From the NCBI RefSeq assembly GCF_900129505.1, contig NZ_LT670818.1, positions 4,745,001-4,809,000 of the forward strand: 64,000 nucleotides of DNA. Direction: 5' to 3'. Shown one piece after another: positions 4,742 to 50,588 of this stretch. A program made the position numbers and the translations under genes. Under the pieces are notes generated by a model. It made no database searches, was not told where the DNA came from, and was given only the letters and a program-made list of their open reading frames with translations. Origin of the DNA: Bradyrhizobium erythrophlei (GTDB lineage Bacteria > Pseudomonadota > Alphaproteobacteria > Rhizobiales > Xanthobacteraceae). Position 1 is the stretch's first letter. Each line of letters opens with the position of its first letter.

Positions 4742-4827
4742 CGTCATTGCGAGCGAAGCGAAGCAATCCATCTTGCGGCGGAGCGAGGCGTGGATTGCTT
4801 CGTCGCTTGCGCTCCTCGCAATGACGG
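4742..4827. repeat. Palindromic intergenic repeat ('cgtcattgcgagcgaagcg' type)
   Basis: Arms 4742-4770 (cgtcattgcgagcgaagcga...) and about 4791-4827 (tggattgcttcg...ctcgcaatgacgg) form a long inverted repeat between two minus-strand genes. The same left arm recurs at 48069, where it is interrupted by an IS110-type element, so this copy shows what the uninterrupted arm looks like. Confidence 0.85.
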
Positions 4828-47381: not shown

Positions 47382-48060
47382 CCTTGCCTTCACCGTCGAC
47401 GCCCAGGACACCACAACCCCGCTGACATTGCCGATCGATCAGGCCGTGATCGCGGGCTGGACCGGTCGCGATCCCGTCGCGCGCGACAAGCACATCGCCG
47501 AACTCGAAGCCATCGGCATTGCGCGGCCAGCCACCACCCCGATCTATTACCGCGTCGCCGCGCGGCGGCTGACCACGGCCGACAGCATCGAGGTCTGCGG
47601 CGGCGATTCCTCAGGCGAGGTCGAATTCGTGCTGATCGGCTGGCAGGGCCGCATTTTCGTGGGCACCGGCTCCGATCACACCGATCGCAAGGTGGAGACC
47701 TACAGCGTCACTGTCTCAAAACAGATGTGCGACAAGGTGATGGCGCCGGTGCTGTGGGAAATCGAGGACGTCGCCGATCACTGGGACCAATTGGTCCTGC
47801 GCTCCCATGCCTGGATCGGCGGCGCGCGTGTACTGTACCAGGAAGGCACGCTCGATGCGATGCTGCCGGTCAAGGACCTCATCGCGCGCGGCTTCGGCGG
47901 CAAGGGACTGCCGGACGGCTGCGTCATGTTCGGCGGCACCTTTGCCGCCAAGGGCGGCATCCGCCCCGCCAGCCGATTCGAATTCGAACTCGAGGATCCC
48001 GTGCTCAAGCGCAGCATCCGGCACGGCTATGATGTGATCGAGCTGCCGGTGCTGGGGTAA
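47374..48060 (+). CDS. DUF2848 family protein
   Basis: A 228-residue soluble protein with no known reaction. Typical stretches are 'LPIDQAVIAGWTGRDPVARD', 'YYRVAARRLTTADSIEVCGG', 'IFVGTGSDHTDRKVE' (a GSDHTDR motif with possible metal ligands) and 'PDGCVMFGGTFAAKGGIRP'. Its overall pattern recalls fumarylacetoacetase-fold enzymes, which I offer only as a possibility. The GTG at 47374 has GGAGG nine bases upstream and overlaps the amidase gene. Co-occurrence with amidases is common and suggests it handles the amidase product or substrate. Last gene of the operon. Confidence 0.85.
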   Translation: MFDLAFTVDAQDTTTPLTLPIDQAVIAGWTGRDPVARDKHIAELEAIGIARPATTPIYYRVAARRLTTADSIEVCGGDSSGEVEFVLIGWQGRIFVGTGSDHTDRKVETYSVTVSKQMCDKVMAPVLWEIEDVADHWDQLVLRSHAWIGGARVLYQEGTLDAMLPVKDLIARGFGGKGLPDGCVMFGGTFAAKGGIRPASRFEFELEDPVLKRSIRHGYDVIELPVLG

Positions 48061-48068
48061 CGCTTTCT

Positions 48069-48090
48069 CGTCATTGCGAGCGAAGCGAAG
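48069..48090. repeat. Palindromic intergenic repeat, left part, cut by the IS110-type element
   Basis: cgtcattgcgagcgaagcgaag (48069-48090) is identical to the left arm of the element at 4742. There it continues directly with caatcca; here the continuation (agcaatccac...) is found only at 49681, after the insertion. Confidence 0.85.
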
Positions 48091-48165
48091 ATTCCATGGG
48101 GGTGGATAGCGGCCAAGTCTGACGCCAGACTGAGGTTGTTCAACCACCCACCCTGGAGACCACCG

Positions 48166-49368
48166 ATGTTGCACGATCATCCTTCCGTTGGACCGACCGC
48201 TATCCGCACACAGTTTGGCGCAATTTTCGTTTCGTTGGAACTCAGTCGTTCGAAGTGGGTGCTGACGTCGCTGTCGCCCGGCAACGGGGAGAAGATGTCG
48301 CAATATAGCCTGGCGGCGGGCGACGTCGGCGGATTGTTGGCACGGTTTGCGGACCTTAAACGCAAGGCAAAAGAACGCACGGGATCGGATTATCCGATCA
48401 TGACCATTCATGAGGCCGGCCTTGACGGGTTTTGGGTGCACCGGGTTCTGCAGGATGAAGGGATCGAGAGCCACGTGGTCGATGCGGCTTCGATCGCGAC
48501 GTCGCGCCGGCGCCGACGGGCCAAGACGGACAAGATCGACGGCGAGGCACTGTTGCGAGCACTGTTGGCCTTCAAGCGCGGCGAGCCGCGGGTGTGCGCC
48601 ATGGTGGTTGCGCCTTCGCCTGAAGAAGAGGATCGTCGCAGGCTTTGCCGCGAGCGCCAGACGTTGCTCGACGAGAGGATCGTGCACACCAACCGGATCA
48701 AGGGGCTTCTGTTCGCGCAAGGAATATCCGACTACGCGCCGCTGCGGCGCGACCGGCGGAAGCGGCTTGAGGGCTTGCGCACTGGAGACGGACGGCCCCT
48801 GCCGGTGCATCTGAAGACCCAGATCAGCCGGGAACTTGACCGGCTCGAACTGCTGATCGACCAGATCCGCTCCGTCGAGGCCGAGCAGGAGGCCGTGCTG
48901 GCCGCGGAAAGCAAGGCGGCGCCCGAGGCGGGTTCCGGTCCCGAGAAGGCGGTGTCCGAGGCAGAGCCGCGCAACGCGGTGGCGATGTTGCTGACCGTGA
49001 AGGGGATCGGCGATCACTCCGCCGCTATTCTCTGGTCGGAAGGACTGTCTCGACAGTTCTCCAATCGCCGCCAGGTCGCAGCCTATGCAGGTCTGGCGGC
49101 GACGCCCTGGCGAAGCGGCGCGGTTATGCACGAGCAGGGCTTGTCGAAAGCCGGCAATCCGCGACTGCGTACCTTGATGGTCCAGCTCGCCTGGCTTTGG
49201 CTGCGCCATCAGCCAGAATCGGCGCTGGCCCGCTGGTTCAACGCGCGCGGCGAGCGAGGCCGCAAGGGCTCCATCGTTGCACTGGCGCGCAAGCTGCTCA
49301 TCGCTTTGTGGAAGTACGTCACACAGGGCGTCGTCATCGAGGGAGCTGCGATGAAGGCCGCCACCTAG
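48166..49368 (+). CDS. IS110-family transposase (DEDD)
   Basis: A 400-residue recombinase with an N-terminal RuvC-like DEDD domain and a C-terminal Tnp_20 domain. Acidic residues are E25 ('VSLELS', where most members have Asp), E83 ('IHEAGLDGFW'), D122 and D125 ('AKTDKIDGEALL'). The C-terminal part has 'LLTVKGIGDHSAAIL', 'RQVAAYAGLAATPWRSG' and the catalytic serine region 'GLSKAGNPRLRTLM'. A coiled coil lies between. The ATG at 48166 follows TGGAG at eight bases; an upstream ATG at 48136 is less likely. Probably intact and active. Confidence 0.92.
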   Translation: MLHDHPSVGPTAIRTQFGAIFVSLELSRSKWVLTSLSPGNGEKMSQYSLAAGDVGGLLARFADLKRKAKERTGSDYPIMTIHEAGLDGFWVHRVLQDEGIESHVVDAASIATSRRRRRAKTDKIDGEALLRALLAFKRGEPRVCAMVVAPSPEEEDRRRLCRERQTLLDERIVHTNRIKGLLFAQGISDYAPLRRDRRKRLEGLRTGDGRPLPVHLKTQISRELDRLELLIDQIRSVEAEQEAVLAAESKAAPEAGSGPEKAVSEAEPRNAVAMLLTVKGIGDHSAAILWSEGLSRQFSNRRQVAAYAGLAATPWRSGAVMHEQGLSKAGNPRLRTLMVQLAWLWLRHQPESALARWFNARGERGRKGSIVALARKLLIALWKYVTQGVVIEGAAMKAAT

Positions 49369-49680
49369 CAAAGGCTCGCACTTCCGGAACCTTCTGTCAC
49401 CAACGCAGGACAACCAACAAAACCAATCAGCCAAGGCCTGATCAGCCTCGGCCGATCCGGGTCGACGAACCGATGGATTGCATGGCTTCAAATGCCGCAA
49501 CGAAGAATGGTCCCGTCCTCTCGAGCCTACCCGTCGCAAGCGGAATCCTGGTGCGGTCGCCTCGAGCGACGACCGAATGTGAGTTTGATCTGGCAGGCAA
49601 ACCAGATCGTCAAAGCCGGCTCGGACCTCGGATCGCAAACATAAGGAAGAAGACTTATTGACACACACCATCCCCATGTG
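49369..49680 (+). ncRNA. Candidate guide (bridge/seek) RNA of the IS110-type element
   Basis: The 312-base 3' non-coding end has hairpin potential, e.g. gatctgg/ccagatc at 49587-49593/49602-49608. It contains tggattgc at 49475-49482, the exact complement of gcaatcca next to the right insertion junction (49682-49689), and 19 bases later cgaag (49502-49506), equal to the last bases of the left target half. In IS1111-group elements the targeting RNA is encoded between the transposase gene and the right end. Extent, strand and existence of the transcript are inferred. Confidence 0.4.
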
Positions 49681-49773
49681 AGCAATCCACTCTCTCTTTT
49701 TGCTGCCCCATGGATTGCTTCGCGGAGCCGGTCATCGGGCGCGCGTTCGCGCGACCCGTTGGCTCGCAATGAC
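49681..49773. repeat. Palindromic intergenic repeat, right part, after the IS110-type element
   Basis: Continues the interrupted element with agcaatccac, then catggattgcttcgcggagc, and ends ggctcgcaatgacg, the inverse of the left arm at 48069. The bases to 49838 hold the promoter and ribosome site region of the next gene. Confidence 0.8.
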
Positions 49774-49838
49774 GGGGAGAGCGTATCTTCCCGGAAATCG
49801 GGTGGCGTCCATCGCTCCAATTTGAGAAAATCAGCGCC

Positions 49839-50588
49839 ATGAAATCAGCCGCCAAGAACATCCTCGAATCCGCACCCCCATCCGACATCGCCGCGCGTGT
49901 CGACGCCATCGACTGGGGGCAGGCGACACGCGAGCTCGATGCGCAGGGCTGCGCCGTGCTGAAGGGATTGCTCTCCCCGGGTGAGTGCCGCGCGCTCGCG
50001 GCGCTCTATCCGGACGACAGCCACTTCCGCAGCCGGATCGTGATGGGCCGCCACGGCTTCGGGCGCGGCGAGTACAAATATTTTGCCTATCCGCTTCCGC
50101 CTGTCATCGCCGAGTTGCGGCCGTCGCTTTATGCGCGGCTGCGTGACGTGGCCAATCGCTGGAATGAGGCGATGGGCATCGACATCCGCTATCCGGAAAC
50201 TCACGACGCGTTCCTGAAGCGATGTCATGCCGCCGGCCAGGCACGGCCGACACCGTTGCTGCTGCAATATGAAGCCGGCGATTACAACTGCCTGCATCAG
50301 GATCTCTATGGCGAGCACGTGTTTCCGCTGCAGGTCGCGATCCTGTTGTCGGAACCGGGCCGCGATTTCACCGGCGGCGAATTCGTGCTGACCGAACAGC
50401 GGCCGCGCATGCAGTCGCGGCCCGAAGTGGTTCCGCTCGCGCAGGGCGATGCCGCGGCGTTTGCTGTGCATCACCGGCCGGTGCAGGGGACGCGCGGGAC
50501 CTATCGGGTTAATCTGCGCCACGGCGTCAGCCGGATCCGTTCTGGCCACCGCCACACCGTTGGCGTGATTTTTCACGATGCGAAGTGA
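49839..50588 (+). CDS. 2-oxoglutarate/Fe(II) oxygenase (prolyl-hydroxylase-like)
   Basis: A 249-residue non-haem iron oxygenase. The iron ligands are H153 and D155 in 'NCLHQDLYGE' and probably H228 ('NLRHGVSRI'); R238 ('SGHRHTVG') should bind 2-oxoglutarate. 'PLQVAILLSEPGRDFTGGEF' is the conserved core strand. The gene ends where alkB begins (no spacing). This pair is seen in other alphaproteobacteria, suggesting a DNA/protein alkylation or oxidative repair role, but the substrate of this subfamily is unknown to me. Confidence 0.88.
   Translation: MKSAAKNILESAPPSDIAARVDAIDWGQATRELDAQGCAVLKGLLSPGECRALAALYPDDSHFRSRIVMGRHGFGRGEYKYFAYPLPPVIAELRPSLYARLRDVANRWNEAMGIDIRYPETHDAFLKRCHAAGQARPTPLLLQYEAGDYNCLHQDLYGEHVFPLQVAILLSEPGRDFTGGEFVLTEQRPRMQSRPEVVPLAQGDAAAFAVHHRPVQGTRGTYRVNLRHGVSRIRSGHRHTVGVIFHDAK

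What the first reader, a model, noticed from the sequence alone, without database searches (positions are those of the whole stretch)
48091..49773. IS110/IS1111-type element in a palindromic repeat, with a possible self-encoded target guide
Seen: the repeat arm cgtcattgcgagcgaagcg is intact at 4742 but split here at 48090/49681, with dinucleotide AG at the junctions. The 312-base 3' non-coding end contains tggattgc (49475-49482), complementary to gcaatcca at the right junction, and cgaag (49502-49506), equal to the left junction. Known: IS110/IS1111 recombinases use a bridge (seek) RNA with two guide segments, encoded in the IS1111 group between transposase and right end. Inference: this is a natural RNA-guided IS programmed for this genome-wide repeat. 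An 8-base match alone is suggestive, not proof.
Basis: partly seen in the sequence, partly recalled or inferred. Interest (0 to 1): 0.75.

Follow-up and report, generated by a model that had tools for sequence, protein, structure and literature searches.

The report
RNA-guided insertion element targeting genomic repeats
This is a jumping DNA element that appears to carry its own RNA guide for landing in one spot of a short palindromic repeat scattered through a soil bacterium's genome; the kind is already known, but its relatives show guide and landing site changing together.

Summary
The window carries a 1,590-bp IS110/IS1111-family element (48091-49680) between two copies of an AG core, inside one arm of a CGTC-type palindromic repeat. 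Two identical copies were found in the genome, both at the same offset in the repeat. The 312-base 3' non-coding end encodes a predicted bridge/seek RNA. Its target loop holds TGGATTGC (complement of the right flank) and CGAAG (equal to the left flank).

In relatives, guides change with targets: 29 of 35 match at 7-8 of 8 positions; with 18 distinct targets, no permutation of 200,000 did as well. One donor guide equals the right end in 37 of 37. A 44-pair RNA fold has compensatory changes. Six of 19 relative loci have an uninterrupted CGTC repeat at the same place.

New member of a known kind. Extras: guide switching between CGTC repeats, GTAG repeats and genes; glutamate for the first catalytic aspartate; guide order equal to IS621's on the other strand. 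No RNA or activity data here.

The parts
48069..48090 (+). left part of the interrupted CGTC-type palindromic repeat (ends in CGAAG)
   Evidence: uninterrupted repeat at the same place in 6 of 19 relative loci
48089..48090 (+). left copy of the AG core dinucleotide
   Evidence: shared junction of both copies and of relatives
48091..49680 (+). IS110/IS1111-family element, 1,590 bp between the cores
   Evidence: identical second copy elsewhere in the genome
48095..48105 (+). left subterminal inverted repeat CATGGGGGTGG
   Evidence: one mismatch to the right one
48166..49368 (+). recombinase gene, 400 aa (ATG start preferred to TTG at 48136 because the nearest homologues are 389-400 aa)
   Evidence: PF01548 and PF02371, NF033542, homologues, fold like IS621/ISCro4
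49369..49680 (+). 3' non-coding end that holds the predicted bridge/seek RNA
   Evidence: no further copy in the genome outside the two elements
49430..49634 (+). predicted structured core of the bridge/seek RNA (true RNA ends unknown); closing stem 49454-49462 with 49625-49634
   Evidence: 44 pairs, 93.5% of cells paired, 15 pairs with changes on both sides in 25 sequences
49474..49481 (+). target guide 1, TGGATTGC, complement of core G + CAATCCA
49501..49505 (+). target guide 2, CGAAG, equal to the left flank with the core
49542..49547 (+). donor guide 1, GGAATC, complement of core G + ATTCC of the left end
   Evidence: 22 of 32 elements pair at 5 of 5, 3 with one wobble, 7 not
49577..49583 (+). 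donor guide 2, ATGTGAG, equal to the right end with the core
   Evidence: 37 of 37 elements, four variants
49658..49663 (+). TTGACA, possible -35 box of a promoter formed when the ends join; the -10 match across the junction is weak
   Evidence: TTGAC at the same distance in 35 of 37 elements; promoter function is inference
49668..49678 (+). right subterminal inverted repeat CCATCCCCATG
49681..49682 (+). right copy of the AG core
49681..49774 (+). right part of the interrupted repeat, CAATCCA at the junction, ending CTCGCAATGACG
4742..4826 (+). intact repeat of the same kind in the window

Best explanation
An RNA-guided insertion sequence of the IS110/IS1111 family. Its recombinase, with an RNA from the 3' non-coding end, joins the circular element to the site CGAAG/CAATCCA in CGTC-type palindromic repeats. 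One loop of the RNA pairs with both halves of the target, the other with both ends of the element. Exchange happens at the shared AG, so nothing is duplicated beyond the 2-base core. Shown here: anatomy, target identity, guide-target and guide-end covariation, conserved structure, empty sites. Inferred from the published work on IS621, ISEc11 and relatives: that the RNA is made and bound by the recombinase, and that a circle whose joined ends form the promoter is the intermediate.
For: Both copies found in the genome in the same repeat at the same offset. 23 of 24 copies read in five genomes have CGAAG and CAATCCA at both junctions. Guides match own targets: 29 of 35 elements at 7-8 of 8, 28 of 30 at 4-5 of 5 for the second guide; 18 distinct targets, 0 of 200,000 permutations. 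Donor guide 2 equals the own right end in 37 of 37 in four variants; donor guide 1 fits 22 of 32 perfectly. Covarying structure. Uninterrupted CGTC repeat at the orthologous place in 6 of 19 relative loci. Recombinase domains and IS621/ISCro4-like fold.
Against: No transcript, binding or movement data. The window's RNA folded alone is no more stable than shuffles (z -0.05). No Rfam match. 6 of 35 elements match fewer than 7 of 8 target positions, one (L095) only 3 of 8 at the aligned place; 2 of 30 match the second guide at 3 of 5. Donor guide 1 does not fit in five elements of the GTAG clade. One copy (L099) lies off its group's target.
Confidence: 0.92

Rival explanations
1. The recombinase itself reads the repeat, by sequence or by hairpin shape, and the guide-like words in the 3' end are remnants of target sequence or chance.
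For: The target is palindromic and could form a hairpin; a guide match in a single element could be chance at the level of 0.005% to 0.33%.
Against: Guide words at the homologous place change with the target in relatives with 18 distinct targets (0 of 200,000 permutations as good), including targets in genes that are not the repeat. Within the repeat-targeting clade a close relative with a changed guide sits at the changed site (L010, L012).
Confidence: 0.04
2. A dead or dying copy: the anatomy is as described, but this element no longer moves.
For: Only two copies found in 9.18 Mb; the first residue of the catalytic tetrad is E, not D.
Against: The two copies are identical over 1,594 compared bases at unrelated loci. 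The gene is open, the guides match, and relatives with the same E occur as several copies with identical scores (residue).
Confidence: 0.1
3. A target-only seekRNA (as described for ISEc11): the RNA reads only the target, and the ends are recognised by the protein through the subterminal inverted repeats; the donor words are just repeats of the end sequence.
For: 11-bp subterminal inverted repeats are present; donor guide 1 fails in five GTAG-clade elements.
Against: Donor guide 2 follows the right end in 37 of 37 elements in four variants, and GGAAT/GGGAT follows ATTCC/ATCCC in 22 of 32; the words flank a conserved stem.
Confidence: 0.15

Closest known systems
ISRel9 (IS110-like element, Rhizobium; nearest named relative met)
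   Same: recombinase about 67% identical over 96% of the query
   Different: its ends, guide and target were not examined here
IS1111-group elements with seekRNA (ISEc11, ISKpn4, ISPa11; PMC11187229, parts 1-3, passages and discussion seen)
   Same: long non-coding region after the gene, subterminal inverted repeats, top-strand complement before bottom-strand match, no duplication, natural redirection; ISPa11 also lands in REPs
   Different: recombinase 400 aa, not 330-350; 8 bp, not 9-10 bp, between the inverted repeats in the joined circle; donor guides seen here as well
IS621 and ISCro4 (IS110 group, bridge RNA; PMC11208160 section 12 and passages, PMC11208158 passages seen)
   Same: two loops, one for target and one for donor, core dinucleotide in each pairing, recombinase fold; IS621 also lands in REPs
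   Different: RNA lies after the gene; on the gene strand the guide order is reversed and the core is AG; E in place of D11
REP-targeting IS elements of Tobes and Pareja 2006 (PMC1525189, passages seen)
   Same: IS110-family elements landing in palindromic repeats, including ISRm19 in Sinorhizobium
   Different: other repeats and hosts; no guide RNA was known then
CGTC- and GTAG-tagged palindromic repeats (PMC3733652, passages seen)
   Same: the target repeat begins with CGTC, is palindromic, and Bradyrhizobium is among the hosts; relatives land in GTAG-tagged repeats. The assignment is mine, by sequence
   Different: the authors report only a few fortuitous links of CGTC repeats with transposase genes; here the link is systematic, as landing sites

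Membership tests
IS110/IS1111 family (broad) | recombinase with PF01548 and PF02371 | tested here: met
   both above the curated cut-offs; NF033542; best structure matches ISCro4 and IS621
IS110/IS1111 family (broad) | DEDD tetrad and conserved SG | tested here: inconclusive
   reads E25-E83-D122-D125 with S317-G318: the first residue is E; in the 120 nearest proteins E 109, D 9, unreadable 2
IS110/IS1111 family (broad) | site- and orientation-specific insertion without duplication beyond a core | tested here: met
IS1111 group | subterminal inverted repeats of 11-13 bp, near perfect | tested here: met
   11 bp with one mismatch
IS1111 group | end extensions of 7 bp (or 6) and 3 bp beyond the inverted repeats | tested here: not met
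   4 bp + AG + 2 bp = 8 bp between the inverted repeats of the joined circle (coordinates), against 9-10
IS1111 group | long non-coding region downstream of the gene | tested here: met
   312 bases after, 75 before the gene
IS1111 group | guide for the top strand precedes guide for the bottom strand | tested here: met
   49474-49481 before 49501-49505, same order in relatives
IS1111 group | recombinase of 330-350 aa grouping with IS1111 recombinases | tested here: inconclusive
   length not met (400 aa; homologues 389-400 mostly); grouping not tested against a curated set
IS110 group (narrow) | long non-coding region upstream, no long inverted repeats | tested here: not met
   75 bases upstream, 11-bp inverted repeats; length of 400 aa would fit
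Bridge RNA systems | target-binding loop matching both target halves | tested here: met
   (sequence and covariation only)
Bridge RNA systems | donor-binding loop matching both element ends | tested here: met
   one guide fits 37 of 37, the other 22 of 32 perfectly (sequence only)
Bridge RNA systems | RNA expressed and bound by the recombinase | not testable with these tools
   no RNA-seq or binding data

The most novel reading that the evidence does not exclude
This clade is a distinct bridge-recombinase lineage in which the whole recombination apparatus has the opposite polarity to its gene. Read on the other strand it has IS621's geometry: core CT, long guide first, short guide second, the RNA-bearing end serving as right donor. 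The 'reversed' IS1111 guide order would then not be a different mechanism. The lineage works with glutamate at the first metal-binding position, has specialised on palindromic repeats of both the CGTC and the GTAG kind, and in many members carries a second conserved folded module of unknown role after the bridge RNA.
Probability: 0.3. Interest if true: 0.6.

Novelty: new member of a known kind. Interest (0 to 1): 0.45.

Why it matters
It gives a natural series of related RNA-guided recombinases with at least 18 different targets, including a repeat whose 13-base target occurs 127 times in this genome. Rules for guide length, mismatch tolerance, pairing with the element ends and natural guide switching can be read from it. 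Landing in repeats outside genes may spare the host (inference). The mirror reading would unite the two described guide orders in one mechanism, and the E-E-D-D site asks how fixed the catalytic tetrad is.

Tried and rejected
Folding the window's sequence alone gave no signal (z -0.05, 94 of 200 shuffles fold at least as well); structure was judged on the alignment instead. Rfam had no match in 47900-49900 and three sub-threshold matches in three relative loci, taken as chance. PADLOC had no match. A first guide test at one fixed alignment column (12 target representatives) gave 1 of 200,000 permutations for guide 1 and 0 for guide 2; own mean 5.1 of 8 against 2.4. It undercounted elements with a shifted register, so the best of nine registers was then taken, for own and foreign targets alike. 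One search collapsed similar targets (12 representatives, 0 of 300,000; own target strictly best in 10 of 12 for guide 1 and 6 of 12 for guide 2); one search collapsed only identical ones (18).

Rows: one element per group of copies was used (38 picked). Dropped from the guide counts: L025 (truncated), L034 (its non-coding end was mis-cut by my script), L040 (right flank ends with the contig). Left out because my pattern did not recognise both or either end: L019, L020, L021, L022, L023, L031, L033, L043, L049-L051, L054-L060, L082-L084. On later reading, L019 and L020 carry CATCGAG equal to their left flank, and the G012 group (L022, L023, L082-L084) carries GTATGAG against GTACGAG and GTCTTCTT against GTCTTCCT of L023: imperfect, matched by eye, not in the counts. 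Placement between IS110 and IS1111 by tree was not achieved; the two yardstick transposases only served as outgroup.

Full report
What is there. The window lies at 4,745,001-4,809,000 of a 9.18-Mb single-contig genome. Same-genus relative G197 shares its contig length with Bradyrhizobium sp. CCGUVB4N, and G011 shares two contig lengths with B. barranii plasmids, so the genus is Bradyrhizobium by inference. A 1,590-bp element (48091-49680) lies between two AG dinucleotides (48089-48090, 49681-49682). Outside them is a palindromic repeat beginning CGTCATTGCGAG and ending CTCGCAATGACG; an intact one lies at 4742-4826. The 13-base target GCGAAGCAATCCA occurs 127 times in the genome, the same word read backwards 0 times. 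Within the element are a 75-base leader, a 400-aa recombinase gene (48166-49368) and a 312-base non-coding end. The ends carry an 11-bp subterminal inverted repeat with one mismatch.

Copies and landing sites. Two copies were found in the genome, identical over the 1,594 compared bases, and no further copy of the non-coding end. The second copy lies in another variant of the repeat; the two flanks share only CGAAG on the left and GAGCAATCCA on the right. In four relatives the picture repeats. Of 24 copies read in five genomes (own 2, G039 6, G096 5, G033 5, G193 6; not all copies of G033 and G193), 24 have CGAAG on the left and 23 have CAATCCA on the right; the exception, L073, runs into what reads as transposase sequence. 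In G193 a module of the element occurs 23 times. Of the 20 of these loci that were fetched, 15 have AGCAATCCA at the right junction, 1 has a one-base insertion there, 2 run into transposase-like sequence and 2 show no right end; some repeat copies already counted. The place without the element was sought with the left flank in 60 genomes, of which 40 matched, own genome included. Of the 19 relative loci fetched, 6 have an uninterrupted CGTC repeat between the same two neighbours (L103, L105, L108, L114, L115, L116; five of them with the exact CGAAGCAATCCA), and 13 have other or degenerate sequence. So the element entered a repeat and left nothing but the 2-base core.

Target guides. TGGATTGC (49474-49481) is the complement of core G plus CAATCCA. 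CGAAG (49501-49505) equals the left flank with the core. In one element this could be doubted: shuffles give the 8-mer in 0.33%, both words at that spacing in 0.005%. The test is in relatives. For 35 elements with readable right flanks, the best of nine registers around the aligned segment matches the own right flank at 7 or 8 of 8 positions in 29. For 30 with left flanks, the second segment matches at 4 or 5 of 5 in 28, where two of the five are the core. Among 18 distinct targets the own-target mean is 7.1 of 8 against 4.0 for foreign targets treated alike, and for the five bases before the core 3.7 of 5 against 1.4; none of 200,000 permutations reached either. The targets are not all independent by descent, so this is not a strict probability.

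Natural redirection. In the recombinase tree the CGTC-repeat elements form a clade of ten rows (support 99/96). Inside it L010 and L012 have switched to CTCGTCGAAG/CAGACCA and carry TGGTCTGC with GTCGAAG or ATCGAAG. Another clade sits at GTAG/CCCGGATG-like sites and another at GTAG/GGTGGGC, both GTAG-type repeats by my reading. Other elements sit at further single sites.

Donor guides. ATGTGAG (49577-49583) equals the right end with the core. In 37 of 37 elements the homologous word equals the element's own right end, in four variants: ATGTGAG 26, ATACAAG 7, ATATGAG 3, ATATAAG 1. GGAATC (49542-49547) is the complement of the left end. Of 32 elements with a left end, GGAAT meets ATTCC in 12 and GGGAT meets ATCCC in 10; three ATCCT ends have GGGAT (one wobble); five ATCCT ends of the GTAG clade do not fit at the aligned place, one is 4 of 5 and one could not be aligned. 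So the RNA looks like a two-loop bridge RNA, not only a target seeker.

Structure. RNAalifold on 25 sequences puts both target guides in an internal loop and the donor guides beside a stem; 12 of its 34 pairs have changes on both sides. I then named a 44-pair structure by adding closing stems. 93.5% of cells pair, against 28.5-45.7% when partners are slid; 15 pairs have changes on both sides, against 6.6 in shuffles (0 of 500 as high). The structure was partly read from these same sequences, which favours the paired percentage; the compensatory counts are the stronger part. The window's sequence alone shows nothing.

Recombinase. Pfam, NCBIfam and a predicted model (mean pLDDT 77.9) place it in the family; the eleven best structure matches are ISCro4 or IS621 chains (TM by target 0.63-0.67). 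The tetrad reads E25-E83-D122-D125, with S317-G318. In the 120 nearest proteins listed, the first position is E in 109, D in 9 and unreadable in 2. In IS621 the matching residue D11 coordinates the metal and its mutation abolished recombination (PMC11208158, passages). Relatives with E in several copies suggest that E works here. The low-confidence stretch 109-123 of the model includes D122.

Mirror reading (inference). In IS621 the 5' guide (8-9 nt) pairs with the bottom strand on the left, the 3' guide (4-7 nt) with the top strand on the right, and the core is CT (PMC11208160 and PMC11208158, passages). Here the first guide is long (median 7 contiguous non-core bases) and the second short (median 3.5). 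On the other strand the core is CT and the first guide is the left one, and the end that carries the RNA is then the right donor, as in IS621. So the reversed order described for IS1111 (PMC11187229) may be one geometry with the gene facing the other way. I did not see this stated in the parts that I read; figures were not available.

Known and new. Bridge/seek RNAs, their place after the gene in IS1111-type elements, natural redirection and landing in REPs are published (PMC11187229 parts 1-3, passages and discussion; PMC11208160 section 12 and passages; PMC1525189 passages). The CGTC and GTAG repeat superfamilies are published too (PMC3733652, passages). Six paper searches listed no title or start of abstract that describes this clade; that is a limited search.

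Noticed in passing
window 48238-48240 (E25 of the 400-aa recombinase): The first residue of the catalytic DEDD tetrad is glutamate in this clade: E in 109, D in 9, unreadable in 2 of the 120 nearest proteins.
   Followed up: partly
L008:2978-3153 and 15 other relative elements; not found in the window's element: A second conserved folded module (TCAAGG...CCTTGAC with inner hairpins) lies between the bridge RNA and the right end in 16 elements found among the 38 picked; 11 of 21 predicted pairs have compensatory changes. It has no match in the window's genome. Role unknown.
   Followed up: partly
L006, right of the element: A second right-end sequence with CATGTGAG-CAATCCA follows 24 bases after the first, as if left by an earlier event.
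   Followed up: no
L073, L143, L144 (genome G193): The right end runs straight into transposase-like sequence instead of the repeat, as if copies were nested or partly deleted.
   Followed up: no
L099 (genome G094): A copy whose right flank (GATGGGTAGTC) is not the target of its group (GGTGGGC).
   Followed up: no
G000:C1:5208066-5208440 (L005): A distant IS110-type gene (29% identity over part) in the same genome.
   Followed up: no
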